Positions 4,001 through 57,923 of a stretch of DNA of 64,000 bases are shown here, one piece after another (positions within the stretch are counted from its first letter, which is position 1; each line of letters begins with the position of its first letter). The notes under the pieces were generated by a model. That model had not been told where the DNA came from, ran no database searches, and worked only from the letters and a program-made list of their open reading frames with translations. The translations under genes were made by a program, and so were the position numbers. The DNA is from Branchiostoma floridae. Lineage: Eukaryota > Chordata > Leptocardii > Amphioxiformes > Branchiostomatidae. The stretch covers positions 5,602,692 to 5,666,691 of the forward strand of contig NC_049985.1 in the NCBI RefSeq assembly GCF_000003815.2, given 5' to 3'.

Positions 4001-7000
4001 CTTGAATGTTGTAGACTCGACTGTCGTCTCTGATGTCAAATCAGTTACCGTAGGGATGGAAGTTAACTCTGTACTGTGGGGAAGCCTTGCTCTTGTTGAC
4101 AAGTCAGGCTTGGTTGTTGTAAGAGGAGTGTCAACTGGAGGCCGGGCAGTCAGCACCGTTATGATGGCTGGCAAGCGCCTAGGCTCTTCCTCCTTTTGTG
4201 TTGCTGATGGCTTTGTGGATACTGCAAGCATATCTGTCACAGGTTCCTTTGTAGTTTTTGCCATTGTGGTGCTGTCTGTCTGTGTCATCAATGGGGTAGT
4301 TGTTGGGAGGGTTGTTGTGACCTTAACGTCATGTTGCGATGCAGTAGAACTATCCATTTCTGCTGTCTCCATACGTTTGTCTGAGGAAGCTGCTAAAGTT
4401 GGCTGGACAGGTACAGTACTTGCATTAGTTTTGAACAGTTCATTCATCTGATTTGAAGTGTCATTGAAGCCATCAACTTGAAGATGTCCTCTACCTCTCC
4501 ACCATCAATGCCCTCCAANNNNNNNNNNNNNNNNNNNNNNNNNNNNNNNNNNNNNNNNNNNNNNNNNNNNNNNNNNNNNNNNNNNNNNNNNNNNNNNNNN
4601 NNNNNNNNNNNNNNNNNNCAGTCTTGTGGCCATCAGCTCTGGTTTTTCTGTTCTCTGTTTGACTTCTGGCTAGTTACAATAGGTGAAACAGTTGTCATGT
4701 GTGCATATACTGTAGATGTCCCAGGTGCTGATTTGTTGACTGTTCTGGTTTCTTCAGTACTTGCTCCAGTTGGCTGTGTCACCACTTCTACCATCTTGGA
4801 TAGTTTGACTGTTACAATGTCCCTTAGAGCTGGGGCATTTCTAGTGGGTGGAACCTCCTTCACAACCATATCTGCTGTTGTTTTCTGCATTGGGGATGGC
4901 ATTGTCACTGTTTTTGTAGAAGATGGTATTTCACTTGAACTTTTTGCTTTCTGTGTCGTTAGATTTTGTGTATCTGTTAAAGTTGCCACCATTGGTGTTG
5001 TGCTCTGTACTCCAGATGCCGCCTGTGTGGCATTTGTTGCAGTATTGCTGTTTGCAGTAGCCTCTTTTTCTGATGTTCTGGGTTGCTCTGTACTGTCCAC
5101 TGCCAAGGTGTTCTGCACTGTTGTTCCATCCTCCTCAGAGAAGGGCTCGCCTGTTGATAAGAAGTCAGTCTCTGTTGTTGTGCTGCTAACCTTGGTATAA
5201 ACAGTAAAAGGTTCTACCTTGGATTCATTAGGTGAATCAGTCTTAATCATGGCTTCCATTGTTGGAGGAGGGGCATCAGTTGATAGCTGTTCATCTTCAA
5301 GTGCAACAGTGTCATCTTTGGGACCTTCTTTGTTTGCTTTTATCTTCCCTATCATGTGAGCTGCAAGATCTGATTCAGCTGTAAACATTTCAAGGTCTAA
5401 AGTTTCTTCTTGGGATGTGGTAGTTGGTCTGTCAGTTGCAAAGTCAGTTACTGGCTTTTCAGTTGTTTCCATCAATGCCTTGTTTGTTTCACCAATAGAT
5501 GATGTTGGGTAAGCTGTTTCAGTGAGTATTCTCTCTACTGTTTTACCAGTCTCAGTAGTCCTTGCACTTGAATCTGAAGTGTTTCTGGCACAGTTGTAAT
5601 AGTAGACACAGGCATTGTTGAANNNNNNNNNNNNNNNNNNNNNNNNNNNNNNNNNNNNNNNNNNNNNNNNNNNNNNNNNNNNNNNNNNNNNNNNNNNNNN
5701 NNNNNNNNNNNNNNNNNNNNNNCAGTCTCAGTAATCCTTGCCCTTGAATCTGAAGTTGTTTCTGGCACAGTTGTAGTAGTAGACACAGGCATTGTTGAAA
5801 CAAAGGAGGTGACTTTTTGTTTCTCTTCCTTTGTGGGTAGAGTGTTTGTTGGCACAGTTGTTTCCATTGAAGGTACCACTGTTGTCAGTTCTGTATCCAT
5901 CCTTGCATCTGTTGTTGCTACTCCTGTTGTTGTTTGTGTTGTTGTTTCTTGTAGGTTTGTCAAAATAGTGTCTTTTTTGTCTGATTCAGCCCCCTTTCCA
6001 TCCTTGCTTGAAACTATCAGATCTGTTGGTAGGATGTCTTCTCCATGCTCATCAGCCAACAGGGGACCACATTGGCCCAAACCACAGGGCACCACGGTTG
6101 GTGTTTTGTAAACTGCAGTTGTGTCTCTGTCCTTAGTAGATGGCTTTGTAATGGGCTCTGTTGTGTCTTTGTTCTGATTGGTTGGCTCTGTGATAGGTTC
6201 TGTTGTACCTCTGCCCTGATTGGTTGGCTCTGTCACATATTCTGTTGTTTCTCTGCCCTGATTGGATGGCTCTGTTGCAGGTTTTGTTGTACTTCTGTCC
6301 TGAATGGTTGGCTCTGTTACACTCCCTGTTGTTTCTTCGTCTTGATTGGTTGGCTCTGTAACATACTCTGTTGTTTCTCTCTCCTGATTGGATGACTGAG
6401 TTGCTGGCACTGTTGTTTCTCCACCCTGATTGGTTGGCTCTGTAACATACTCTGTTGTTTCTCTCTCCTGATTGGATGACTGAGTGGCTGGCACTGTTGT
6501 TTCTACATCCTCATTGAATGGCTCTTTAACATACTCTGTTGTTTCTCTCTCCTGATTGGATGACTGAGTGTCTGGCACTGTTGTTTCTCCACCCTGATTG
6601 GTTGGCTCTGTAACATACTCTGTTATTTCTCTCTCCTGATTGGATGACTGAGTGGCTGGCACTGTTGTTTCTACATCCTCATTGGATGGCTCTGTGGCAA
6701 GTACCAATACTTGTGATGGTTTCTCAGGGAGTTCCTGATTAACTTTGCTTCCGTCCTCTTGTTTTGATTGCTTCATCTTTTCCTCATTTTTCTGTTCTGC
6801 TTCAGAGCCTGTAAACAATGACATGGCTTCAACATCCTCACCTTCATCTTGCAGAAAATCTCCAGATAGAATTCTTTCAAAAGCATCATCACTCAGTGCT
6901 GCAGTAGTCATTGTAGTTTCTTCCATACTACTCTGTCCACCTGCATCCTCTGTGGTTTCTTCTGAAGTCTCTTCAGACTCTGATTGGACAGATGTGTCAC

Positions 7001-9772
7001 CACTACTTTGATAGTCATACTCTGCACTCGCTTCCATGTGGAGACCAGAAACTGAGCCATCTGCAAGGAGTGGCAACTCGACCATGCCGTCAGGTACTTC
7101 CTCACACAGTACGTCAGCAGGTTCCATCACTTCAACGTGTTCCAGCCAACTGGCATCTCCACCTTCTTGACTTGAATTTACAGTTGGCTGCTCATCCTTG
7201 TCTTGATCTTTGTCTTGGTCTTGTGTTTCTTGGACTGTTACTACTTCTGGACCAAAAACCTCAGCTTCTAGGTACCTAGGAACATCTGTGGGTTTTGATT
7301 CTGTGGTAGCCTTTGCTGTGGATGTGGTCATGATGTTCTCAGTGGCTGCAGGTAGTGTAGTGGTTGGTGAACTCTTGTAAAGGTTGGTTTGCTGTGGTTC
7401 TGTCTGAAGGTTCTCTTTCTGTAGTATCTGTGTGGCTGCAGGTATTTTTTCACTTGGTGCTGACAGGACAGAAAAGGTAGTGGTCTGTTGGTGGTCATCT
7501 TTTGCAGCCATTGTTGGTTGAAGAGTGGTCAGCTTCTGTTCCATCTCAGCTAACTTTTGAGTAGTTATCCTGTCTTCTTCCATGACAGAAATGGTTGTTT
7601 GTGAATTGGTTGTCTGTGGATTCTCCTCTGGCCTCTGTGTAGTACCTTGATTGTTTTCCATCTCAATCATCTGTTCCAAGTGTGGAGTTGTGGATTCTTT
7701 CTTCTGAGTGGACACTTCTGCTTCTGCTGGGATGGCTGTTGTAGTCTGTTGACGTGGTCTGTCTTCTTGTATATTGTCTGGCTTAGCATTTTCCCTTGAA
7801 GTTGATGCTAGGACTTCTTCAGTTGGCTGCACTGGCACCAACTTCTTATCTAGGCTAGCCCTTGTTGAAGTAGGTATCATTTGTGTAGTTTGACCGATGG
7901 TTGGCTCTATTGTAAGTACAGCAGGTATGTTGCTGTTTGTTGTGTCATCTGTTGCACTAGATTTGCCAGTTTCTTTCAGGTTTTTGCTTCTTCCACCATC
8001 TTGGACTGAGCCTCCATCCCGTTGCCATCCTTCCGGAAGTTCTTGGTTTGTCCCTATTGTAGCTTCTTCTTCCCTCTCTTTTGTATGTGCAGGTAATGCT
8101 GGCTGAAGGATGTCATCTTTCTGTTTTTGTGTCACTTCTTCTGTTGGCCTGTAAGTGGTGGTAGCAACAACTGTCTGTGATGTTTGTGAGTTGACGGACA
8201 CCTCCTTTTGCCTAGGTGGGTCCGTAGACCGTCCTTCTTTTGAGCTCTGTCCCACCCTTGACGTTACCTGTGTTGGTTGCGGGCTTGTAGAATCTGCCGT
8301 TGTGCTTGGTGATTGGGTTGTCTTTGGATCGACTTTTGTACTTGGTGAACGGGGTGTTGTAGTATCCAGCCGTGTGCTCGGTGACTGTGTAGTCGTAGAC
8401 TCTACTGTTGTACTAACTGACTCAACAGTAGTGGGATTTACTGTTTTGCCTTGTGACTTGTCAGTTTTAGGATCATGTGATGACTGTGTACCTTCTTCTT
8501 GTTGAGTGCTTTTAGTTGGCTTTACTGTGGTGTTCATCTCCATTCCTGCAAAGGCTGCACTGGTTAAGTCCTGTTTGGTAGTTGATGTTGTGTGCAGGGC
8601 AGGTGTGACTGGTTTTGTCTCAGTCTGTTGCGTTGTTTTGGCAGGTGTAATGGTAGTACTAGCTTGGTAGGATTCAGCAATCCTTTCCATTTTGTCTGGC
8701 ATTTGATGTTGTTCAGTTGTGGCTCTCTCAAAGACACTACTGTCATCCCCTTGCCAGCCTTGTATATCCCCACTTTCATCCACTTTGATAACCTCACTGA
8801 CTGAGGAAGCTTCATCTGTACCTTTAGATGCTGGTGTTTTCATTGTAGGATCACCACCTGTTTAGGTTAAGAAGGGTTTTTCAGAAAGATGGCATCGCAG
8901 AAATGTATCAAAACTAAAACAAGAAGACGGATTGCTTTGGTATCCGATGGTTGTTGTGATTTCTTACCAAGTTTTCAGCACCAAGGACAGAGGATGTCAA
9001 ATCATATGATCATGTTATATTGTTGAGAAATAAAGAATGACACTCAATAAGTGACCATAAACAGTACTGAAAACTCTCCTTTGCCTGTGTGTGCAATGTA
9101 TGTGCTAACCTATTCCTTTAAGAGCCTTAGGAAAGTTGGAATCACTGATCTTTTTGAAGAATTACGTTGGTAGTTTGTTACATTGTCATTTATAGAGTTA
9201 CCACAGTATCACAATTTACCAGTTATAAGGTACATACTGCAAGTACAGTAATCGTATGACATACCTTGCTCTGACGTTGTCAGGTCCTCCATACTCTTCG
9301 GTGGTGTGGTCACAGGTGTGGTAGCATTCTTTGGGCGCTCTGTCGCTTCTGTGGTGACCTTCACCTCATCTGTACCAGTGGTACTCAGGAGGGCTATGGT
9401 CTGCCTCGTAGATGTGGAGTAGACGCCATCCTGGGTAGTGCTACCAGGGATGGTTTGGGTTGTGGCTGGGAGTCTGCCAGGGGTGCTGGTGCCTGCACTT
9501 GCAGATGTGGTGCCCAACTTCACCTCACTGCTGGGTGGCATTGTTGTAGCTGGGTCTTGATCTACCTCTGGAATCTTTGTGGTAGAGTCCAGGGTGGTGG
9601 GTTGTGTGTTGGGGTACCCGGGTGGTACCATCTCATCCTCGTGTATAGGGGAGGGCGGGGTCTGTACTGGCATGCAGGCTGTCTGCTGTACGGCCCCGAA
9701 CGTTGTCCACAGCACCAGCACGGTCAGACGGAGAGGTGGCAATCCTGCCACTGCAGATGCTGTCATCCTCAC
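1049..9772 (-). CDS. Secreted mucin-like Thr/Ser-rich protein
   Basis: This encodes an extracellular, probably heavily O-glycosylated mucin-like protein; I do not recognise a named orthologue. The first coding exon (9772-9265) starts MRMTASAVAGLPPL and continues through a hydrophobic VLVLWTTFGAV core, a good signal peptide. It ends at a GTATGT donor in phase 1. An acceptor places the next exon start at 8857 in matching phase, reading G-D-P-T-M-K-T. That exon runs to a stop at 1049 and is dominated by Thr, Ser, Pro and Glu. It holds a 14-residue array of the type TEPTNQxxETTExV (about 6135-6700), an STTVESTTTQSPS-type array (8290-8420), a CGLGQCGP island (about 6060-6090), two acidic Tyr-rich Ser-Gly islands (about 6990-7025 and 3721-3800), and a recurring hydrophobic island RLPAIITVLTARPP. 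Two N gaps (4519-4618, 5623-5722) and probable one-base errors (near 5576 and within 4448-4518) break the reading frame, so the true length is about 2,900 residues only if it is one exon. A transmembrane segment was not seen. Confidence 0.7.
4519..4618. other. Assembly gap (100 N) in the mucin-like exon
   Basis: Run of exactly 100 N, so probably of arbitrary length. Just to its left (4448-4518) the protein-like minus-strand frame LEGIDGGEVEDIFKLM runs into a stop, while the long mucin frame continues one frame over. This suggests a one-base error beside the gap. Confidence 0.95.
5623..5722. other. Assembly gap (100 N) flanked by near-identical copies
   Basis: Run of 100 N inside the mucin-like exon. 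About 80 bases left of it (5545-5622) repeat the bases right of it (5723-5800) with four differences. One of these is a missing T (GAAGTG against GAAGTTG) that shifts the frame. This is an unmerged haplotype or repeat collapse rather than a biological frameshift. Confidence 0.9.
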
Positions 9773-9784
9773 TGGCTGTCAGAT

Positions 9785-23100: not shown

Positions 23101-26100
23101 NNNNNNNNNNNNNNNNNNNNNNNNNNNNNNNNNNNNNNNNNNNNNNNNNNNNNNNNNNNNNNNNNNNNNNNNNNNNNNNNNCAAGGACATCCAGTGTCAA
23201 CTGTGTAGAAACATCCTGTCAATAGTGCCAAAAAATTCTTATTGACATGATCTGTTATGTTAGGTTGCAATGTCCCTATATTCATTGTATCAAGCAACAA
23301 TGACACCAATAAATGAGCAGACTCCAGGTTTATTCTAAACTGTATAGCCAAGGACGGCTGAGTGCTACAATATTGTTGTCAGTGATTCTAGAGTTATCCT
23401 AGCTCGAAGGAACATCCTTTCAATAGTGCCACAGAAATTCTAATGGTTCGGAACCTGATATTCCACTTCAGGAGTTGAACAGCCTGCAGCCCCACCAGGA
23501 CTTCCGCCTGTGGATGACAGCAGAGGTCCACTCCCAGTTCCCCACCATCCTGCTGCAGTCCAGTCTCAAGATCACGTTCGAGGTGAAAATCTTTGAATAC
23601 TACACACAGTCTTTCACTTGTTGGTGTACTTTGTCATGCACTCTTACCCAGTATTTTCAGTATGGAAGATGACATATTTATGTTACTTTGTGTCATGATT
23701 CATTCTAATCCCATCTATAGATATATTTGTAAGAATCCAGCCCGTGTTTCACTTGATCATGATGCCCACAGCACATGACTATACTGACCAGGAATCACAA
23801 TATTACCTATAGCACTTCCTCCTGATTAAAAAATCAAGATATACCATGCACATGTGGAATTTCCACTGAATAGAAGATGTGAAAAGCCAAAGTTCTAATG
23901 CCCAACATTGACCTTGACCTTCACCTTTTGAAGAACCACCTGCAGATCAGATATCATCACAATCCATCCACAGCTTGAGTTATAGTAAGTGGTTCAGAAA
24001 AACAGAAATTCCAAAACAGTACCTTCTTTATAGAGTAATTGATTATTGTGACTTTCTTTCCTCCAGGCTCCACCTGGCATCAAGAAGAACCTCCAGCGTA
24101 CTTACGATGCCTGGCCACCTGAGTTCATCGCCAAGGGTGGGAACGTGGTGCGCTCACAGGCCTTCTTCGCCCTGGCCTGGTTCCACGCTGTCTGCCAGGA
24201 GAGGAGGAACTACATCCCTCAGGTATGTAAGGCCTAGAAAAATTAACGTACACCGTCATGTAACTGAACAAGGACATACACGTATTGTGTTACTCATTTT
24301 TACAACCACTGTTCCAAGTCTTAATCTGTTAACAGCTAGAGTGTGAAGGAAGTCAGACTCTGTAACAAAGCGTGCAGAACTATTTGGAAGTCTGATCATC
24401 TAAATTGCCAGGTCAAAAATTTTATGTCTCTTGCCTGCTTGTAAGTTTAAAAAATGCAGTGTAACATGGACAAGCAGGAAGATTTTTTGTCATTTTTTCA
24501 TCATTACCTGCAAATCTTAAAGTCTCTTATACTCTGAATTTGGCAATATATGTACCACAAGTGAACCCTAGTGTACATTAATATTTTACTTCTAGCTCCC
24601 TCATTGTCCCACCTTCAGTCGGACATACATGTGTTTTGTACCTCCAGGGCTGGACCAAGTTCTACGAGTACTCTACAGCAGACCTGCGAGCAGCAGCAGA
24701 TATCATTGATCGCCTCTTCACTGGTAAGGGTCTGCTTACATGTCTGAATGATTGCATGCAAAGGGCTAATCTTGAGATAGTTCAACAGTACATGGGTCTT
24801 ACAAGACTCAGCTGTCTTGCTAAGTTGTCATTGATCCTGTCTGCAGTTGATTCTGTCACAGCTTGCTTGATAATCCTACCTTATATATTACCTTACCTTA
24901 GACCCTCCCGTAATCCTACAGCATCAGAAAAATAAAGCCATTGAACAGTAAGATTAATTGGAATCCTATTCTTCCAGTTGTTTCATTGCAGTCCATGCGA
25001 CTATTGTGTTTTACATGGATTCATAATATGCACATTCATGTATGATTTATCTTATTTAAAACCCAGAGTGCCCAGTTGCCATATGATGTACCTGTAGCAG
25101 TTGTATAAATCATTTTACAATTCTGTCCAATCACAAACAGACCAACGTGAGGTGCCATGGGAGTTTGTCCACGGGCTGTTGGAGAATGCCATCTACGGAG
25201 GCCGTGTGGATAACAACTGTGACATGTCCGTTCTGCACTCGTACCTGGTTCAGTACTTCGACAAGTCTCTGCTCGCAGGCAGCAGCTCACGGGGGAGAGG
25301 GAAGAGACTGGCACCTGGAGTCTCCATGCCTTCATCATGTCACTATGGGGTTGGTATAGGATATAATCTGTATCAGATACTGTCTTAAGATATACTGTGC
25401 ATCAGATTCTGTGTTAAGATATACTGTGTATCAGATTCTGTGTTATTTTTGTTTGTTTATACCTCTATGTCCACCAGTAATGCCAGGGACACATTTCCAA
25501 ACTGGTCTCCAGCTGGGCAGCTTGCAAAAACAAAAAGTATGATATAAAAGACAACAAAAGAAACATATGAAAATAATCGAATCAGTTAAGAGTTTAGTTT
25601 GTGTACATTTTTTGGTATACATGCATGTACATTCTTATTTTTTGTTCCTGCAAACTGATTGAAATTGTGAGCCTGACTTACATGTAAACTTGCTGCTACC
25701 ACATGCCTACAAAAATAGTGTGTTGCACTGAAAGGTCACTCCAAAGGTAACTTGTCATTTTCTTGAGAGGCAACCTAAAGATATAGTTTGCATTGTCTTA
25801 AAACAACTTTCTCTGACCTATTCCTCAACAGGACTACCAGGATGTATACACTTTTATTTTTTGTTCCCACAAACTGCCCATCCATACCTTGGTTTGAAAT
25901 TGTGACCCTGACATAGACCTACCACATGCCTACAAAAATGGTGTGTTGCACTGCACTTTTCTTGAAAGGTGTCCCTAAGATACAATTTGCATTGTCCTAA
26001 AGCAACTTTCTCTTTCTCTCAACAGGACTACCAAGATGTGATTGAGGCCCTTCATGAGGACGACAGACCAGCGTACTTCGGACTCCCCGCCAACATCGAG

Positions 26101-29100
26101 CGGTCCGCTCAGCGTATCATCAGCGGACAGGTGATCGGTCAGCTGAAGGTGCTGATGCGGTCCGAAGCGGCAGCAGAGAAGTTTGACCGTGAGACGTGGT
26201 CCACGGAACTGTCGCCGATCCTCAACCTGTGGAAGAAGCTCAACCAGGTCTGTGTCAGGTGTCAATGACAATCATAAAGGAAAAGAGAAGAAAAGGACTT
26301 AAAGTCCACACCAATTTCATTTCTTGGTTGTCATGTTTTCTGAGAAAAATAAAGAAGAAAATACTTAAATACATTGTCAGTAAATTAGTAGATTAACATG
26401 AATACAGATGGACTCTAAAAAGAAATTCTGTTGAGACATTTTCAGGAGTCAGGGTAGTTGGATGCAACTTTTCCTCCATGCCCTCTCTTTTAATGAATTT
26501 ATTGTGACCCTAAACAGTATGTCACCCCATATCTATTATAGGCATGTTTGGCAACAATGTTTGATCTACCAGTACATCTTTTTCAGGGAGACAGTGGATT
26601 GAGGCTAGCACTGTATTATGAATTCTGTTCATATACTATTAGACTTTTCCCACTTCCCCCAAGAATAATAGAACATGCATGTTGAATTCTGATGATAATT
26701 ATCAGCTCATCCACTTTGATGATGAAAAGTTCAACGAAGGCAGTATGATAGATATTACACAGATTATCATTATATTGATTGACCTTAGAAAATAAGTTTT
26801 GAATTTCCTGACATTAGTTCCAACGCTATGACTTGGAGAATGGAACCTTTTCTGATACCCATTTCCTGGCAGAGACCATAAAACTCCGCAGGCAGGCAAG
26901 TCAAATACAAGTAGCTTTAAATTGAGTTGAATCGTTCATTGAAGGTTGCAACAGTTCAGTTACTAGCACCTTTAAGTTATTAGTTGCTACTCTTCAAGGG
27001 TTGAAGTGTGGCATGTTGACATGTTAGACCTTTGGACCATCTAGTATGAGAATAGGGATCTGTTATTTTGGTGTTATACTGCCAATGTGGCCACTATATG
27101 TTGTCATAAAATTGTTGTTGTTTGTTTGGTTGGTCCATTCGTCTGTTTTTTTGTTTACATATTTCATGTACTTCATTGGTTTGTTGATTAATTAGTTGGT
27201 TTATGATAAACTGTTTTAAAGTATCAAATGATTTTTTGCTTTATTGTATGCAAGTAGGCCTAGGCTTATTGCAAAAATATCATCAATTTGTTTTTAAAAG
27301 ACCTTGCTACATTCATCAGATCTGGCCCAAGGTACTGAGACACCCTCTGTTGATCCGTTAGGAAACTGCAGCTAAAATGTTGCTTTGCAGGACACATTAT
27401 TTTGGTATTAGCTCTCACAGGTAGTTTTTCTTATGTACTAATAACCTGTGTTATATTGTAGTGTATACATTCGTAATGCAAATACAAGTAGTTACTGTAA
27501 ATGCAAAAATTTTCACAGTGGTTTAATGTTCGCGGCATTTGCGGTTGCCACTTCACCACAAATTTAAAACCACCGCAAACATTTTTCCATGGCAGTAAGA
27601 GACTACAGTGCATGGCGCAACCGTGAACTTAAAACCACCGCGAAAAGTCCTTTTTCCCGATACTGCAAAATTAAATCCCCGCGAACTTAAATACATTTAC
27701 AGTAGTGTATACATTCGTGGTGCAAATGCTAGTGGTTTAAACAATTATAGTTAATCCAATATTAAATCCACATCTGATCCCTTCCCAGGCCTCCCAGCTC
27801 CTGCAGCAGCGCATCGCTGCGCCCAGCGACCAGGCCGACAAGCCCATCATCTCCTTCATCCAGCTGGAGCGCTTCTCCTCCGTCAAGCTGGTGCAGAACG
27901 TGCACCAGTCGCTGGCCGCGCTCAGCCGCGTCATCCGGGGGACAAGCCTGCTCACGTCCGACGTGCAGACTCTGGCAAAGTCACTGCTCAGACAGGAGGT
28001 GTGTATATGCACATGTTCAGTTCAGTTCAGTTCATGTACATGTACATTTGTAAATCTCAGGATAGAGTTTGGAATGTGCCAGTATAGAGATCACAACTGG
28101 ACTTAGTGAATCTAAAGATATTCCCGTAAAAGACAGCCAGATCTTTTCAACTTTGATTCATGTCACTTGAGACCAATGAATTGACCTGGAATTTAGGATT
28201 TACAAAGAAGAGACCACCCTAACAAATTCCTAACACCCTGTTTGGAGCTTCTGTCAATGGAAATTCTGATCGGGATCTCTACTGGTAGAATCACAAAAAA
28301 ATGTGGTGGGATCTTAATCATGCTTAGGCCTTCAAACTTAATGCCCCATCTGACTCTGAGAGGGCGTACCTAACTACAATGTATAGCGCGATACTCATCT
28401 ACTATTCGATACCGGTACTCATTTTCACATGAGTCAAGTGAAGAAATAGGTCTTAAGTGCCTTTTCCAAGGGCACAACATTCAGATTCTAAGCCAACAAC
28501 CCTAACCAGAAGACTACCCTGCCACATTGGGGTACTGGTGGCTCTTTAACACTTACATTTGTCCTGTGTTTACTGCAGACTCCAGGAGGCTGGCAGAGCA
28601 TGTGGGAAGGCCCTGAAGACCCCATGCAGTACCTGCGTGCGCTGGTGGCTCGAGCAATGGCCATCCAGGGGTGGGCAGAGCGAGCGGAGGCCGGCACACT
28701 GCTGAGGGACGTCCTGGACCTGTCCGAACTCTTCCACCCGGATACCTTCCTCAATGCTCTCAGACAACAGACTGCAAGGTACATTGTACTCGTCTATTGG
28801 AATCTTCTTAGAGTTTATCAAATAGATCTCCAGCATAGTTGAAAAGTTATGAATATAGACATGCTATCAAAACGACAGTGATAAAAAGCAGTTATTCAGG
28901 CAATCGGATATTATCTTGGAAATGGTTGTCTGATATGATTTTGACCGTGAGGATAGTCCTTGAAGACTGTCAAGCATCAAGGAGTCACATTCTCATTGAC
29001 AGACAGATCTTAAGTTTGTATAATTTTTTTTAGTAACTATTATACTCCACTGCTCAGAAATGATAGTAATTTGAACAAATACTGTTGAGCTGAAGCTTGT

Positions 29101-48657: not shown

Positions 48658-48870
48658 GGGGCCGCGTGGCGCAGTTGCGGCATGTTCGCCTCGAGACCGA
48701 GAGGTTGCTTCGAGGTTGGTTCGAATTCGCCTTCCGTGTCACCGATGTTGTGCCCTTGGGAAAGGCACTTTACACGACTTTCCTCACTTAACTCAGGTGT
48801 AAATGAGTATCTAGCTGCGGCTAGTGGCCTTGGCGGGGCTTTGTGGCCGAGACAGGCCTTTAGGGTTTAA
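48658..48870 (+). mobile_element. tRNA-derived SINE
   Basis: It starts with a tRNA-like head carrying an internal pol III promoter: A box TGGCGCAGTTGCGG (48667-48680) and B box GGTTCGAATTC (48718-48728), 38 bases apart. The non-tRNA body follows with TTGTGCCCTTGGGAAAGGCA and AACTCAGGTGTAAATGAGTA, ending near TTTAGGGTTTAAA. Mismatches in the arms and the attached body argue against a functional tRNA gene. It lies just upstream of the histone-fold gene. Confidence 0.8.
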
Positions 48871-48949: not shown

Positions 48950-48957
48950 ATTTGCAT
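48950..48957 (+). promoter_or_regulatory. ATTTGCAT octamer upstream of the histone-fold gene
   Basis: A perfect Oct-factor octamer, 97 bases before the start codon at 49054. In animals this element is characteristic of H2B promoters (Oct-1/OCA-S), which fits the H2B-like spacing in the encoded protein. No TATA box is visible between it and the ATG. A single 8-mer can occur by chance, so the support is contextual. Confidence 0.5.
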
Positions 48958-49053
48958 AGAACAACTGAACGCGCCGTGCAGCAGGCTCCGTGCAAACACC
49001 ACGTCTACCCGTTTCTTCACTTTCTCCTGACCTGACACCTGTTTCCACCCACG

Positions 49054-50569
49054 ATGAGAAGAAGAACCAAGCAGATCCGCAGAAGAAAAGGCTCGAGGAG
49101 GCCATCGGACATTCTGAGGGCAGCTTTCGGCTCTTCCGACAGGAGACTTCAGCAGAAGGACGCCCAGCTTCTCAAGAAACTGAATTTGCCCGACCACCGT
49201 GATGACAACGCCTTGGATGCCGTCACTTCCTTGTTGTCTGATATCTTCGAGGTCCTCGCAGAGGAGATGTACCTGTTTGCTGCTCGCGTGTTGGGTATGG
49301 TGTGGCCTTCAAGGATCTACAGATACGAGAAACTGTCCAACTCCGCGTAATGTTTATTAACAACTGCGTCGCCTTGAAAGCGATGCAAAGTCGACACAGA
49401 CTTGCTCGATCAACCTATCACGTGCAGATAAGAAACAGTCGAGCAGAATGGAGGATGGGCTTGTTTTGGACATAACATAAGTAGTTGATGATCAACCGAA
49501 CGGATTGTAACTTGCGTTTGAGGAGTTTACACACTAGAAATGCCGTGGAATAACGTTAGTTACTAAATCGATCCTATGTGTAACGTTATATGTGCTATCA
49601 TCAAGTGTTAACGCTACACCGGTAACGTTGGACTGTTCTGAAATGTTTTGAACTCGTGGGCCAAGAATTGAAGAAAGGGCAAGTCATCAGGAGGTACATC
49701 TGAGTGTATGGGTAGCCAGGAGGACGGCAGTGCTTTATTTATGAATGAATGATTTTATTCCTCAACAATCGCACAAGAAACGATGTATGGCAACCAATAA
49801 CAACTAGTATAGTAGAACAATAACATTTATGGAACAATCATTGACATTTTTGTATGACGAGTGGACGTTGCGCTTCTAAAGGTTAGGACACATGGCAGTG
49901 TTTTCGTTGACGCTTCTGTGGCTGCTGACAACTATCTCCATAACGTAGATGAACGATGAAACTTGAAAACCACTGACGGGAAGACGTTGGCAAAAATTAA
50001 ACTTCTCATGTTTGTAAGGTAGACCTCAGGCAAGATAGGGAAATTACTTCTGTTTTTGCTGCTAACGCAATGTGTGAACTAACCGGCTTAATGTCATATA
50101 ATGACATGCATGTGAATATTCTTAATATCCTATAACTGTTATAGCGTAGTGCTAAGAACAAAATTTTAAAATGTCAATGTCGATTTACATTTGAATGATA
50201 TATGTGGGTGTTATTTATTACTGATCTAGCGGTTAAGATTGTTCAGTACAATGTGCATTTCTTGTGACTTGACGCTCGATGTATCTTGTGTAGTTGGATT
50301 CGTAACTCTAATTGTACCAAATAAAAATTGATATCTCATAAAAATCATTTGTACTCGACTTTCTAGTGTGTTGATTAAGCTTGGTTGTTTTTCATTCACC
50401 TTATTCAAAATAAAAAGTCCAACTTGCTCGGGATTTGAGGTTGCAGGTACCGATCGAGGATCTAGAACGTCTAAAAAGAGCTAGAGAGGATCACCAGGAC
50501 TTGTTCCGGCAACTTGCCCCAGATGATGATGAATTTCCACTCCTCTGGTCTTGGAGAATTTGCAGATAG
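49054..50569 (+). CDS. Divergent histone-fold protein (H2B/H3-like)
   Basis: Probable two-exon gene: 49054-49299 and 50447-50569, joined in phase (122 residues); unspliced reading stops at 49350 (98 residues). The N-terminus MRRRTKQIRRRKG is a basic tail with an RTKQ as in H3. The segment LLKKLN...SLLSDIFEVLAEE aligns without gaps to the H2B alpha1-L1-alpha2 region, matching VLKQV and DIFERIAxEA at identical spacing (24 residues from the first to DIFE). The second exon, VPIEDLERLKRARED, resembles the L2-alpha3 segment of H3 and H2A (P-x-D-[IL]-Q...RR-x-R), and the tail is acidic then aromatic (DDDEFPLLWSW). Residue identity is otherwise low. I infer a chromatin protein or a TAF/CENP-type histone-fold subunit. 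The donor (ATG|GTGTGG) is weak; a neighbouring donor at 49295 would give a different, short end. AATAAA near 50320 could end the unspliced form. No histone 3' stem-loop was seen. Confidence 0.55.
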
Positions 50570-51374: not shown

Positions 51375-53376
51375 TCACACGGTGACCACGTCGATTCCCC
51401 TGGACTTGAACTCCAAGATGTAAAGGTCCTCGGGATCAAACTCTTCCTCCATCAGACAGCCGCAGAACAGTTTCCGAAGGCGTCTCCCCACTCTGCCAAG
51501 TCCACACTTGAACCTCTTCCACGTACTGGGCTTCTTGGTCTTCTGCGTGATGGACTGCTCTGCCTCTGGGTCTGGCAGTGTGATGGTTTCTGATCCTTCA
51601 AAGGTGATCTCCAGGGGATCCCAGCACACACAGCCGTTATTCGTCACCCTTCTCCTCTCCTGTAGCACTTCTGTCGGCTCGTCGGGTAGCGCCCACCAAG
51701 GTACCTGTTCTACCTGTAAACAACAAAGGGAACCTAGTAGCTGACATCCCTGATTTCAAGTAATGTTATGATGTTATTGATCGCTGTCAAACGTATTGTA
51801 TGTATTATAGTTATTAGATGATAAGCGTTAGTATGACAAATATAAAGTAGTGTATATAGTAGAAATTTCTTGTATTTTATCGAAGAGGACTCCAGGAAGA
51901 GTATTGGTATATTAACACTGATGAAGATTCATTGATAATCAAACAAACAAACAAACATTTCAACAGTCTACCTGAATCAGCCCTTACCTGTCTACTATTA
52001 AGGAGTTCACCCTTCTTGTCATACAAAACAAACAGTAGAAGTTTAAACCTATCCCAAACTTACATCGCAGATACCAAACGTTCTGAAATAGAAAGAATTA
52101 CCTAGTAAACCCTTCAATTGATAACTTATTCGACCGTCTTGGACTACCCCAGCCATTTGCTACATTTTGTTGTGATTTGCTTGTTATTTTTATTGTACAT
52201 GTATTTGTCTCTTTCAGGTGTAATATTTGTAAGTAAAATTTTGCGTCCTGTGCTTTCCTTTGTTGATCAATAAAAATGAAAATAAAGTACCTCGAGGTCG
52301 GCGTCCATGTGACTGTCATATGCGTGATGAACGTCGGCGACGGCGACGCTTGTGCTTGCGTGTCCGTCTTCATCCGAAGAGTAAGCATAGAAGGAGTTAT
52401 CCTTCTCCCAGCTTGTTGGATCGTGATACTTGTGCAGAGACTGGTAGAAGGATGCGTTCGGGGGTGACTGTGCTTTGGATGGAGCGTCCACGTGAACTTC
52501 AGCTTGGACCACGACGGAGTTTTTCTCCGGAGAACTTGACTCCGGCTTCTCGACCACAGTCTGTTGTTCTCTCAGCGACGCCTCCAAGGGTTGTTTCAGC
52601 TGGATGTCTTCAAGTTCAAGTTCTTTCTCTGGAGAACTTGACTCCTGCGTCTTGACCGCATTTTCTTGTTCTCTAAGCGACGCCTCCAACGCTTGTTTCA
52701 GCTGGATGTCTTCAAGTTCAAGTTCTTTCTCCGGAGAACTCAACTCCTGCGTCTTGACCACAGTCTCTTGTTCTCGCAACGACGCCTCCAACGCTCGTTT
52801 CAGCTGGATGTCTTCTAGTTCAAGTTCTTTCTCTGGAGAACTTGACTCCGGCTTCCCGACCACGGTCCGTCGCAGCGACTCCTTTAACGCTTGTTTCAGA
52901 TGGATGTCTTCAAGTTCAACATCGCTGACTCCCTCTTTCTCCTCAAAGAACGAGCAGTCGCTGCATTTCGCCAGCATCTCGTCTATGTCTACGGACGTCA
53001 GACTGCTCACGGAAGTCCACACACTGGGGTGGCGCTGCCTCCGCATCAGGGCACCTGACCAGGGAATCCCTGCCATGACGTCATCTATGGTCTGTTGCCG
53101 TCTGAACCGCGAAAACAGCGGCATGTCTGGGAGCAGTGTACGAGCACGTCCGGCCAGGAAAAATTCGATCGTCTTGTGTTGGTTGTAGAACACTTTCGTC
53201 TTCCATGGCAACTCGTCAACGTTACGAACGCCATAAAGATGTTCCAGAACATGGGTCATACCAAAATGAGCTGTTTCGATGTTCCTTGTTATTTGTACTG
53301 TTAACTTGTGACTTTCCTGAAGTGTAAACAATTCTGATGTCTGTAGGGTAAATCTACAAATAGATCTAGAAATCAT
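51375..53376 (-). CDS. Protein with tandem ubiquitin-interacting motifs
   Basis: Two exons: 53376-52291 (donor CTCGAG|GTAC, phase 0) and 51713-51375, giving up to 474 residues. The middle contains four units of about 34 residues (102-bp DNA repeats, 52560-52930) each holding ELEDIQLKQALEASLREQE, the UIM pattern of acidic run, hydrophobic, Ala, then Ser four later. UIMs bind mono- or polyubiquitin, so a ubiquitin-adaptor role is inferred. In the unit nearest the C-terminus the core Ala is Pro (LKQPLEASL), which should weaken it. The N-terminal part (HVLEHLYGVRNVDELPWKT, FFLAGRARTLLPDMPLFSRF) and the C-terminal part (VEQVPWWALPDEPTEVL, then a Lys/Arg-rich stretch with FCGCLMEEEFDPEDLY) are not recognised. 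The start is uncertain: an acceptor-like CCCTACAG|ACATCAG near 53343 could make the first dozen residues intronic, with further exons upstream. Confidence 0.65.
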
Positions 53377-55554
53377 CGTACACTCCTCAATCGTATCAAA
53401 TAGTATTTGTGCACATCAATGTTTAAGATAACTATTTATCAAGACCTGAAAAATCAAGGTTTTTCGTGCTGTCTTCAGGAATAGAACCGTAATTTGCAAG
53501 AATATTCTAGTGGCGGAAACAGTTATAAAGTCGTGGATTGGAAATAGAAATATTACTTTACTAGTACTTTTAAGGTTCAACGTCTTTCTTTTTTTATTAC
53601 AAACTGGCGGCGGGGTTTTTGGTAAACTGTGCAGTGTTTTCAGTTGACGTGTCTGTACATGTCACCAGTTGCCAATCCTTTTGTGGATGCGTCCATGTTA
53701 TATCATCCTTAGGTATGGTGTCCGGATCCAGGTATGTACTACAAAGGCGGAGGAACAGTTGGCGAAAAGGCCAAAGTTGTTAGGGGAAAGCAGATGATGT
53801 TTAATGTATCCTTATCCTGCATATTCCATTCAGGAAACGATATGTACATAGCCAGTAGCCACTATAGTGCTATAGGTGGCGCTTCGAAGGGGTTACATGG
53901 GACCCCGACGCCTAAAAGCGATCCTTTTTTAACGTCCACTAGTGTTTAGAAAATTTTTAAAAAGGTCATTCAAAAATTTATTTTGAAGACGCCTGAACCT
54001 GTTTAGGAACGCTGTAACTCTAATGTCATGTAACGTTATATTTTCACATTTGTACAAGTCAAACTGAAACACCCTATTAGAGCCTAATCTGCAGTACCGC
54101 TCCCGGCCGTCTCCAGAAAAGTGCCCAAAACGACCGTGAAATTGCCAAAGTTCTGTCTTTTCTGGAATGGAAAATCGCGGAAGGCTCTCAAGGAGTTTTG
54201 AGGCTCATTTAACAAAGCTTTGGAAAATGCGACTTCTTGAACTAAAGAATGATAACGCTAATATTTGATTTCTTTCACAAAAAAACGGGATATATTATTA
54301 ATGACACGTTTCAATTGCATTTTAATTGACGATAGTCATGTCCTGTATGTAGTCATGTTCTGAAGGGTTACCACAAAGTTTCGATCATTTTTCGTGAAAG
54401 AATGCGTTCGTTAATGCAACAGTTCTTTTGTTCATCTATCAATATATCTGATTCTCTTGCAATGCTGTAAAGTGTGTGGAATATTGAAAAGTGCAATATG
54501 ATTTTGAGCGCCAGGAGGAGCCGATTGATGACAGGAATCCTTGTGACATCGAATTCTGTGGCATTTCTCCAGTTTATTCAGCAACATATTCAACATCCTA
54601 CACTCAACACGTGCGATATGAACATGCGAACAAAAATCTGAATACCATGAATGGTATCTGTGAATATGAAAATATCACTACGAAATAGCCTTCAATTCAG
54701 TCTCTCTGTACAATAAACGAACTTCAACCTCGGCATGCCAAGTTATGCACTAAAAGTAACATGATAATATTACATTATATACATATATGAAGGTATATTT
54801 CGATTGTCTGTTAAAATAACGGAAAAGAATTGGTCGATTCTACAATTTTGATCAAATAATATGTAGCAGGTACACCAAATCAGGTAGCAGGTACTATGTA
54901 TAAAATATTTTGTATATTCAAAGGTAATGATAAGATTGCGTCAGCCAAGTTAATACAAATCATAAACTAAACTCTGCCTATCAGCTTCAGCCAGCCTAGT
55001 ACACATTCCCTTCTAGGCAATATCTACAGTATAACGTTATATGTACAGGTTCAATGTACAATGTGTGGACTTAACCTACCTTTTACAACGCACGATTAAG
55101 GAAAGTTCAACATCGTGTACTACAGGTTTGTATTACTCATCTATAGATTAGTGTAGATTAAGGCTATGATGTGCACAGGGTGAATGTATCATCATTTCAC
55201 ATCAGTTGCTTGTAACGTTAACTTCAGCTGTTCAGTAAATACATGTGTACATGCCAGTAGCTTGGTACTTTAGACTGCCATCAGTTTCATAAATTCTTGG
55301 TCCTTAGACATCACGACGTGAAATGTTAGCGATAGGACATGATTATGAAAAGAGGTGGCTAGAGGGGAAGTTGAATTTGAGACTGTGTGTACCAAGTTGC
55401 AGACTTTCTTTTATCAGACGCTTTTTTGACGTACATCTTCCTGTTCAGCATTGATTCTATACTTCACAAATGTGGTTCATACTGTATCATTTACATCTTT
55501 CTTCTGACGGTACTTTGGCAAACACTGTTAAATTGTTCAATTTCATGATAACAT
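53377..55554. other. Intergenic or 5' of the UIM gene; nothing recognised
   Basis: The only frames are short and unsupported (for example plus 53734-53949). Upstream exons or the promoter of the minus-strand UIM gene may lie in the first kilobase. No named repeat was identified. Confidence 0.4.
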
Positions 55555-55840: not shown

Positions 55841-57814
55841 TCAGGCATCAGTATCATGATGATGTATCAGGTCATGACCGCTAGTTGTTACAGTAGCCGT
55901 GGTGCCTGTGTTGTTGAAAACAACACCAGGGTCTGGACCAACGGACCGATTCCTGGTCCACCTCTTCCAGAATACTATGAAGATGGTGAAACCAATGAGG
56001 ACAGCAACAGTCACTGCAGTAGCGATGAGGGCAATGAGAACAGACAGGGAGAGACTTGGATCAAGTTCAGGCTCTTGGGACGGCAAATGATGAACAAGAA
56101 CAGATAGGGAGAAAGTGGGAGAAGATACAAGGTAGCTGTTGTCCGTCGGATGGATTGAAGTACCAGTGGTATCTGTATATGTAGAAAGAGGTGAAGCGAT
56201 TGTCGTGGGCACATTCACACGGGCATCAGGTAGGGAGGAAATGGGAGAAGATACAAGGTAGCTACTAGTATTGTCCGTGGGATGGGTTGAAGTACCAGTT
56301 CCAGTGGTATCTGTATATGTAGAAAGAGGAGACGCGATTGTCGTGGGCACATTCAACTGGGCATCAAGTAGGGAGAAAGTGGGAGAAGGTTCAAGGTAGC
56401 TGTTGTCCGTAGGGTAGGTTGAAGTACCTGGTCCAGTGGTATCTGTATATGTGGAAAGAGGTGAAGAGATCGTCGTGGGCACATTCAACTGGACATTAAC
56501 AGATAGTGTGGCAGATGTGGAGCCAGCATGATTTGCTGCAGTACAGACATACGGACCAGCATCTGCTGCAGTAACATTGGTTATGGTGATGGTACCATTC
56601 ACTCCCACAGTCACCCTCCCTTCTGACTCAACACTCACAGTCAGCCCAGATGGAAGAATGACTGTGATGTCGGGTGAGGGAATTCCTGAAGCCTGACAGG
56701 CCAATTGAACAGTCGGCTCCTGCACAAATGTGTTATCGTCACCCCTGTGAAAGCTTAGAATGCTTGGTTCTACACAGATCAGATCTTCGGGATTGATATC
56801 GCTTAATTTTTGCCCTTGTAAGTTGACTGGTTGAGAACAAATAATCTGACGTTCAAATGAGTGAGACCCACTCATCCTAAGCCTGAAGGCCGCCACCCTA
56901 CAGTCGCATTGCCAAGGATTGTTTTGGATATTCAATAGAGAGATGGGTGACAACTCGGCATACAATTGGGAGGGCAGAGTCGCTATCTGGTTGTCGCGCA
57001 GATTTAACATGACTAGTTGTGGCAGATTGGAGAAAGAACCAGGGCGAATGTCGGTTATTTTGTTGTTGGACAGAGACAATCTTTGTAGCTGTGGTAGATT
57101 TGAGAAAGTGCCTGAAAGAATGTTGGTTAGTTGGTTGTGATATAGTAATAAATGTTGTAGTTGTGGTAGATTTAAAAACGTTCCGGGATAAATATTAGTT
57201 ATTTTGTTGTGCTGCAGTTGCAGGGAACGGAGCTGTGGCATGCTTGAGAACGCATCAGCATGAATGTTAGCTATCTTGTTGTTGTACAGTTGCAATCTTT
57301 GCAGCTGTGGTAGATTTGAGAAAGTGCCTGGAAGAATGTTGGTTAGTTGGTTGTCATGAAGAAACAACTTTTGGAGCTGTAGTAGACCTGAAAACACACC
57401 AGGTTCAATGCTGTTTATTTGGTTCTTCTGCAAGTGCAGCCATTGGAGCTGTGACAAACCAGAGAATACATCAGCCTGGATGTTAGCTATTTTGTTGTTG
57501 TGCAGACTTAAACTTTGAAGCTGTATTAGATTGGAGAATGTGGCAGACTGGATGTAGGTAATTCGGTTGGAGGACAGATCTAGATGAATCAGACTCCTAT
57601 ATCTTAAGAATGCATAAGGAGTCATGGTTGTGATGACATTTCCTCTCAGGTAAAGCTTAGTGATATTTCTAGGCAGATACTGAGGAACGCTGCTGAGGTT
57701 TTTATTGCTACAGGAGCAGTCTAATGGGCAACTTGTGTTGCAGGCTGCTGTCTGCTTGGCTTCCTTTAAGACGATGAGGAACAGAACCAGTAGTCTCTTA
57801 AGCTTGCCGCACAT
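55841..57814 (-). CDS. LRR-Ig single-pass transmembrane protein
   Basis: A 657-residue cell-surface protein of the broad LRR-Ig group (LRIG, LINGO and AMIGO share the layout); no orthologue is claimed. The order is: signal peptide (1-24, LLVLFLIVL); LRRNT with CNTSCPLDCSC (25-36); ten 24-residue LRRs (about 51-290) of the LxxLxLxxNxIxxIxxxxF type; LRRCT with NPWQCDC (299-305) and later Cys; one Ig domain (about 349-442, Cys373 and the DAGPYVC Cys424); a Ser/Thr-rich stalk of three 40-47-residue repeats beginning NVPTTIASPLSTYTDTTG; a transmembrane helix (about 590-615, ALIATAVTVAVLIGF) with FWKRWTRNR stop-transfer; and a 40-residue tail ending HHHDTDA. The coding region is one exon; an acceptor (CTCTTACAG) lies 5 bases before the ATG, so the 5' UTR is spliced. 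LRR and Ig suggest ligand recognition or adhesion, perhaps immune or neural. Confidence 0.88.
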   Translation of the reverse strand: MCGKLKRLLVLFLIVLKEAKQTAACNTSCPLDCSCSNKNLSSVPQYLPRNITKLYLRGNVITTMTPYAFLRYRSLIHLDLSSNRITYIQSATFSNLIQLQSLSLHNNKIANIQADVFSGLSQLQWLHLQKNQINSIEPGVFSGLLQLQKLFLHDNQLTNILPGTFSNLPQLQRLQLYNNKIANIHADAFSSMPQLRSLQLQHNKITNIYPGTFLNLPQLQHLLLYHNQLTNILSGTFSNLPQLQRLSLSNNKITDIRPGSFSNLPQLVMLNLRDNQIATLPSQLYAELSPISLLNIQNNPWQCDCRVAAFRLRMSGSHSFERQIICSQPVNLQGQKLSDINPEDLICVEPSILSFHRGDDNTFVQEPTVQLACQASGIPSPDITVILPSGLTVSVESEGRVTVGVNGTITITNVTAADAGPYVCTAANHAGSTSATLSVNVQLNVPTTISSPLSTYTDTTGPGTSTYPTDNSYLEPSPTFSLLDAQLNVPTTIASPLSTYTDTTGTGTSTHPTDNTSSYLVSSPISSLPDARVNVPTTIASPLSTYTDTTGTSIHPTDNSYLVSSPTFSLSVLVHHLPSQEPELDPSLSLSVLIALIATAVTVAVLIGFTIFIVFWKRWTRNRSVGPDPGVVFNNTGTTATVTTSGHDLIHHHDTDA

Positions 57815-57923
57815 TTTGTCTGTAAGAGAAGGGAGTGAATGTATGTGATTACAATCGGATGGTCATTTTGTATACTAGGTGCCCCTTAACTTTTTTTGTA
57901 GATTATGGATTACCAATGCAACT

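What the first reader, a model, noticed from the sequence alone, without database searches (positions are those of the whole stretch)
48950..50569. Undescribed divergent histone-fold gene with H2B-like core, H3-like tail and octamer promoter
Seen: a basic N-terminus with RTKQ; a segment aligning gap-free to H2B through DIFE; a second in-phase exon resembling the L2-alpha3 region of H3/H2A; an ATTTGCAT octamer 97 bases upstream. Known: RTKQ starts H3, DIFERIAxEA is in H2B alpha2, and the octamer marks H2B promoters. Inference: a rapidly evolved, intron-containing histone variant or histone-fold subunit, possibly germline or centromere related.
Basis: partly seen in the sequence, partly recalled or inferred. 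Interest (0 to 1): 0.75.

Follow-up and report, generated by a model that had tools for sequence, protein, structure and literature searches.

The report
Orphan helical gene, weakly histone-like
A small gene in what looks like an amphioxus genome encodes a basic-tailed helical protein that faintly resembles histone H2B, but the resemblance is too weak to call it a histone.

Summary
The stretches described are there: exon 1 at 49054-49299, an in-frame second segment at 50447-50569, and an ATTTGCAT octamer at 48950. Exon 1 has coding-like codon usage; the second segment does not stand out. Exon 1's H2B resemblance beats shuffled copies (0 of 2000), but its E-value is only about 1 among 1577 compared sequences. 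Pfam, PDB sequences and Foldseek on the exon-1 model gave no histone. AlphaFold2 on exon 1 alone predicts helices of suitable length for alpha1 and alpha2, at low overall confidence. Own H2B genes carry the octamer too (3 of 3 near-identical copies), but with TATA box, 3' stem-loop and no intron. CENP-T, CENP-X and probably CENP-W lie elsewhere in this genome. The H3-like tail is four residues. No second copy was found; no other animal genome could be searched. Most likely it is a lineage-restricted gene for a basic, helical, perhaps nuclear protein; a strongly derived histone fold stays open at about 0.3.

The parts
49054..49299 (+). Exon 1: 82 codons, basic tail (residues 1-16) then predicted helices 17-26, 29-42, 51-81; H2B-like stretch residues 38-71
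49300..50446 (+). Putative phase-0 intron (donor ATG|GTGTGG, acceptor TTGCAG|GTA); not shown by any transcript
50447..50569 (+). Putative exon 2: 40 codons and stop, VPIEDLERLKRARED...WRICR*; coding status unproven
48950..48957 (+). Octamer ATTTGCAT, start 104 bases before the ATG; no TATA motif between it and the ATG by reading
48655..48865 (+). High-copy repeat, tRNA-derived-SINE-like by its A- and B-box-like motifs (motif reading recalled), upstream of the octamer

Best explanation
A real, probably lineage-restricted small gene, single-copy as far as found, whose first exon encodes an arginine-rich tail followed by a mainly helical body. The tail most likely acts as a nuclear-localising or nucleic-acid-binding segment, and the long helix (51-81) as a pairing surface. 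The H2B likeness is then chance or convergence of a helical, Ala/Leu/Glu-rich stretch rather than descent. Shown: the open frame, coding-like codon usage of exon 1, no second copy found, no known family found. Inferred: the helices (single-sequence prediction), the nuclear role, the intron, the restriction to one lineage.
For: Coding-like exon 1. No second copy found in 513 Mb. No Pfam family, one weak NCBIfam match (E 0.099) and no histone among PDB sequences. Helices predicted; Foldseek found no chain. H2B-profile E 0.92 (stop-to-stop segment) and 1.4 (spliced) among 1577 sequences. Against human CENP-T the spliced product scores 51, reached by 23 of 20,000 shuffles, yet this genome's own CENP-T gives 31, reached by 828 of 5000, and chicken CENP-T gives 21: one-sequence resemblances of this strength need not hold within a family.
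Against: H2B likeness exceeds shuffles with three H2B sequences (0 of 1000, 1 of 3000, 0 of 3000 for the core) and with a small H2B profile (0 of 2000), so unlike the CENP-T match it does hold within that very conserved family. Exon 1 ranks first of 740 window segments for H2B, CENP-W and CENP-T, of 11 histone-fold sequences tried. With a mixed profile the true histone fold TAF13 scores lower (5.8 against 6.9 bits), though TAF10, the CENP-W exon and NC2-alpha score higher (8.9, 14.1, 17.0). No transcript evidence was available for any gene here.
Confidence: 0.48

Rival explanations
1. A strongly derived histone-fold protein with an H2B-like alpha1-L1-alpha2 in exon 1 and alpha3 in exon 2, which pairs with another histone-fold protein and binds DNA through its basic tail.
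For: H2B profile 5.9 bits and mixed histone-fold profile 6.9 bits for the spliced product, 0 of 2000 shuffles each; with the H2B profile it scores above the true folds TAF13 0.7, TAF10 0.3, NC2-alpha 1.5 and the CENP-W exon 3.5. In the mixed-profile ranking the rows above it are histone, CENP-T or likely CENP-W exons (some by analogy, and CENP-T and H2B were in the profile). Helix lengths suit alpha1 and alpha2. Octamer as in own H2B genes. Exon 2 raises the human CENP-T score from 41 to 51; 771 of 20,000 shuffles of exon 2 do as well.
Against: E only 0.48-1.4; unassigned segments score 7.1, 6.5 and 5.6 bits on the mixed profile. Allowing for the 12 sequences tried, the best score is reached by 7, 24 and 32 of 1000 shuffles for core, exon 1 part and whole. 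Pfam 0. Foldseek 0 chains. Exon 2 adds nothing to either profile score, and the R-x-T motif of loop L2 (recalled) is absent. No TATA box or stem-loop.
Confidence: 0.3
2. A chance open frame or decayed gene fragment, not a working gene.
For: No conservation could be tested; segment 2 is indistinguishable from background; no family match; a high-copy repeat lies 84 bases before the octamer.
Against: Exon 1 codon usage is in the top 2.1% of 567 background windows, there is an A at -3 of the ATG, and the frame is open.
Confidence: 0.18
3. It is this species' CENP-T, CENP-W or CENP-X.
For: Human CENP-T alignment across the junction (16 of 42 columns identical); CENP-W score 44, 1 of 1000 shuffles.
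Against: CENP-T lies on C6 (41.6 bits; 80 bits for three exons joined by eye). CENP-X lies on C13 (83 bits). A likely CENP-W lies on C2: its C-terminal exon was the lowest of 5 sub-cut-off genome hits (16.3 bits, E 4.56) but reaches Pfam CENP-W at E 0.0024, below that family's cut-off, and the histone-like family CBFD_NFYB_HMF at E 0.00019, above its cut-off; a candidate first exon has 0 Pfam families. The window gene is in none of the three hit lists. Own CENP-T, own CENP-W exon and human CENP-X do not match the product.
Confidence: 0.03

Closest known systems
Histone H2B
   Same: 10 identities in 34 gap-free columns over the end of alpha1, L1 and most of alpha2, including DIFE; basic tail; upstream octamer in the same orientation
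   Different: No significant profile match; no TATA or 3' stem-loop; probable intron; L2 and alpha3 not recognisable
CENP-T histone fold
   Same: 16 of 42 columns identical with the human protein across the putative junction
   Different: No match to chicken or own-genome CENP-T; no Pfam CENP-T_C match; canonical CENP-T elsewhere, with other intron positions by eye
Distant histone-fold proteins such as TAF13 and TAF10
   Same: Similar mixed-profile score (5.8 and 8.9 bits against 6.9)
   Different: Those are supported by structures (recalled); this is not

Membership tests
Histone H2B | Match to the core histone profile (Pfam PF00125) | tested here: not met
   0 families at E up to 10; a typed human H2B gives 76.3 bits
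Histone H2B | Similarity to own-genome H2B beyond shuffles | tested here: met
Replication-type H2B gene | Intronless, TATA box, 3' stem-loop, octamer | tested here: not met
   Octamer present; stem-loop absent by Rfam (both strands) and by a + strand pattern; no TATA by reading; intron only inferred. The three H2B genes examined, near-identical copies, have all four features
Histone fold in general | alpha1-L1-alpha2-L2-alpha3 | tested here: inconclusive
   Helices 29-42 and 51-81 predicted, pLDDT 70.2, pTM 0.32, exon 1 only; Foldseek found no chain, without a control; the spliced product could not be folded here
Histone H3 | ARTKQTARKS tail and H3 core | tested here: not met
   Only RTKQ shared; H3 core score reached by 118 to 193 of 1000 shuffles
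CENP-T | CENP-T_C profile and being the species' CENP-T locus | tested here: not met
   No Pfam match; canonical locus on C6
CENP-W | CENP-W profile | tested here: not met
   No Pfam match; not among the 5 genome hits of PF15510; likely CENP-W on C2
CENP-X | CENP-X profile | tested here: not met
   No Pfam match; CENP-X on C13 at 83 bits
CENP-S and TAF families | Being the species' only locus of that family | not tested
   No genome search was made for them; the Pfam scan of the product found none
Any | Expression and conservation in other chordates | not testable with these tools
   No RNA-seq and no other chordate genome held

The most novel reading that the evidence does not exclude
An intron-containing histone-fold protein descended from H2B, kept under an H2B-type octamer promoter, that has diverged beyond profile recognition and serves a specialised (for example germline) chromatin role.
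Probability: 0.15. Interest if true: 0.6.

Novelty: new member of a known kind. Interest (0 to 1): 0.25.

Why it matters
If only an orphan gene, it is one of many. If it were a histone fold derived from H2B, it would show how far a histone gene can drift while keeping its promoter element, and would give amphioxus a lineage-specific chromatin protein to test.

Tried and rejected
Rejected: identity with CENP-T, CENP-W or CENP-X. The human CENP-T match looked good (51, 23 of 20,000 shuffles) but failed with chicken and own CENP-T. CENP-X motif likeness seen by eye was not significant (four settings, shuffle fractions 0.23 to 0.78). An acceptor just at the ATG, which would make exon 1 an internal exon, scored poorly (44 to 45% of window AGs as good). 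An alternative donor at 49295 scores a little lower (5.6% of GTs as good) and is phase 1; with the same acceptor its frame ends after 12 residues. A viral-contig scan found no relative. A planned control fold of truncated own H2B never ran, so the negative Foldseek result has no control. Plain Foldseek against the PDB never ran as a job of its own; one search reports that Foldseek found no chain. Metagenome contigs and genome contigs were not scanned. A DNA search of the gene without the repeat did not complete.

The coding model used two training stretches in the wrong frame; it was redone, and only the count of open runs is kept. One search failed on N letters and was redone. In one search the CENP-T sequence was recalled and differs from the PDB one; from then on the PDB letters shown were used.

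Full report
What is there. The two stretches and the octamer are in the DNA as described. The window lies at C7:5602692-5666691 of a 513.4 Mb, 431-contig assembly. The size fits Branchiostoma floridae, but that name is recalled and was not looked up. Exon 1 runs from ATG 49054 to 49299; joined in phase 0 to 50447-50569 it gives 122 residues. The donor ATG|GTGTGG is among the best 2.9% of window GTs, and the acceptor among the best 11.9% of AGs, by an approximate recalled matrix. No transcript could be examined.

Coding evidence. With a synonymous-codon model trained on seven other stretches of the window, exon 1 scores in the top 2.1% of 567 overlapping background windows, drawn from 29 open runs. 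The 40-codon second segment is average: 47% of 4806 background windows score as high. Stop-free runs of 40 codons are common here: 240 in 19.6 kb of presumed non-coding DNA, both strands. So exon 1 looks like coding sequence, and exon 2 has no independent coding support.

Is it a histone fold? Single sequences. Against human H2B the core (residues 29-122) scores 42 with 0 of 1000 shuffles as high, the exon-1 part of it 2 of 1000 and the whole product 1 of 1000. Against own-genome H2B the core scores 43 (1 of 3000) and against yeast H2B 42 (0 of 3000). Of the 12 sequences, CENP-W gives 80, 32 and 1 of 1000 and the recalled CENP-T 3, 14 and 6 of 1000 for core, exon-1 part and whole; the other nine (H2A, H3, H4, CENP-A, CENP-X, CENP-S, NF-YB, NF-YC, POLE3) give 118 to 761 of 1000 for the core. 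Taking the best of all 12, 7, 24 and 32 of 1000 shuffles do as well. In one search the further panel (HMfB, NC2-alpha, TAF9, TAF10, TAF12, TAF13, own CENP-W exon, own CENP-T) gives shuffle fractions from 0.034 to 0.897. Of 740 stop-free window segments the exon-1 segment ranks first for H2B (42, next 41), CENP-W (46, next 40) and CENP-T (41, next 40), and not first for the other 8 of 11 sequences.

Profiles made here. A profile of three H2Bs gives the spliced product 5.9 bits and a mixed profile of 12 histone-fold sequences 6.9 bits, each reached by 0 of 2000 shuffles. Controls on the mixed profile: TAF13 5.8, TAF10 8.9, own CENP-W exon 14.1, NC2-alpha 17.0 bits; on the H2B profile: 0.7, 0.3, 3.5 and 1.5 bits. 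Then 1577 sequences were scored (1575 six-frame segments of the window and fetched loci, plus two spliced forms). On the H2B profile the exon-1 segment has 6.5 bits, E 0.92. The 11 rows above it are 7 H2B and 4 H2A segments (two of the H2A rows by analogy with the one translated), and the best row below it that I could not assign to a histone has 4.4 bits. On the mixed profile it has 7.2 bits, E 0.48. The 29 rows above it are segments of H2B, H4, H3, H2A, CENP-T and likely CENP-W (identified or by analogy; H2B and own CENP-T were in the profile, so those match by construction), and unassigned segments follow at 7.1, 6.5 and 5.6 bits.

Curated profiles find nothing. Pfam: 0 families at E up to 10 for the product, exon 1 and the core. 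NCBIfam: one weak match to an oxidoreductase model at E 0.099. PDB phmmer: 6 and 3 weak sequences, none a histone, best 15.2 bits. A likely CENP-W exon of this genome, only 58 residues with flank, does reach Pfam (E 0.00019 and 0.0024), but the candidate first exon of that gene does not, so a Pfam blank is not decisive. AlphaFold2 on exon 1 alone gives helices 17-26, 29-42 and 51-81 with mean pLDDT 70.2 and pTM 0.32. The lengths of the last two suit alpha1 and alpha2, but the tertiary arrangement is not predicted and Foldseek found no PDB chain. No control fold could be run.

Exon 2 as alpha3. Joined, the product aligns with human CENP-T across the junction (16 of 42 columns identical, score 51), against 41 without exon 2; 771 of 20,000 shuffles of exon 2 reach 51 and 23 of 20,000 shuffles of the product. 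Chicken and own CENP-T do not show this, and exon 2 does not raise either profile score (unspliced 6.6 and 7.3 bits against 5.9 and 6.9). The R-x-T motif of loop L2 (recalled) is absent.

Promoter. The three own H2B genes that I fetched all have ATTTGCAT starting 82 bases before the ATG, a TATA motif at -64, no intron and a GGCCTTTTTCAAGGCC stem-loop after the stop; they are near-identical copies, so this is close to one observation. The window gene has the octamer at -104, no TATA motif by reading, no stem-loop and a probable intron. A same-strand octamer within 200 bases upstream occurs for 1.25% of window positions, so it is mildly notable. A high-copy repeat of 211 bases ends 84 bases before the octamer.

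Which histone-fold proteins it is not. CENP-T is on C6 (41.6 bits by exon; 80 bits with three exons joined by eye), with introns at other places by eye. CENP-X is on C13 (83 bits). CENP-W is probably on C2: a C-terminal exon, the weakest of the 5 sub-cut-off hits and chosen by its sequence, and upstream on the same strand a candidate first exon found by my mixed profile. The window gene is in none of these hit lists. CENP-S and the TAFs were not searched for in the genome. No second copy of the product was found: 2 matches, both at its own locus, at E up to 0.001, and 1 match, itself, for exon 1 at E up to 10; the tool scores only the candidates of a first look.

Literature. [quoted passage not shown] this is background only. 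PMC5579357 was searched for terms and gave one reference-list passage. Six searches were seen as listings only, and incompletely where long (20 of 450, 15 of 38, 12 of 29); none of the listed papers looked to me like a description of this gene.

Conclusion. Exon 1 is probably part of a real gene for a basic-tailed helical protein. Calling it a histone goes beyond the evidence, though a much-derived histone fold is not excluded. The H3-like tail is not supported and the L2-alpha3 reading is not established.

Noticed in passing
window 48655-48865: High-copy 211-base repeat (40 of the 41 listed matches fall on it; 2476 first-look candidates for the whole query), tRNA-derived SINE by recalled box motifs, upstream of the gene
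   Followed up: partly
window about 25966-28842, + strand: C-terminal exons of cytoplasmic dynein 2 heavy chain (DYNC2H1): PDB E 4e-28 for 28492-28842, Pfam Dynein_C
   Followed up: partly
window 55841-57862, - strand: Uninterrupted LRR plus Ig-domain protein frame
   Followed up: no
window 52267-53415, - strand: Frame with four near-repeats of LEDIQLKQALEASLRE, like ubiquitin-interacting motifs (recalled); no Pfam match
   Followed up: no
window 1049-9778, - strand: Very long Thr/Ser-rich, mucin-like frames with no Pfam match in the three frames scanned
   Followed up: no
L005 (G000:C5:15631401-15634550): An H4 reading split by an apparent intron (5' part in the frame at locus 723, 3' part in the frame at 1456), unlike the six other H4 loci fetched
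   Followed up: no
L020 (G000:C2:12946000-12955900), - strand: Likely CENP-W gene: C-terminal exon plus a candidate basic first exon, with 0 Pfam families for the latter
   Followed up: partly
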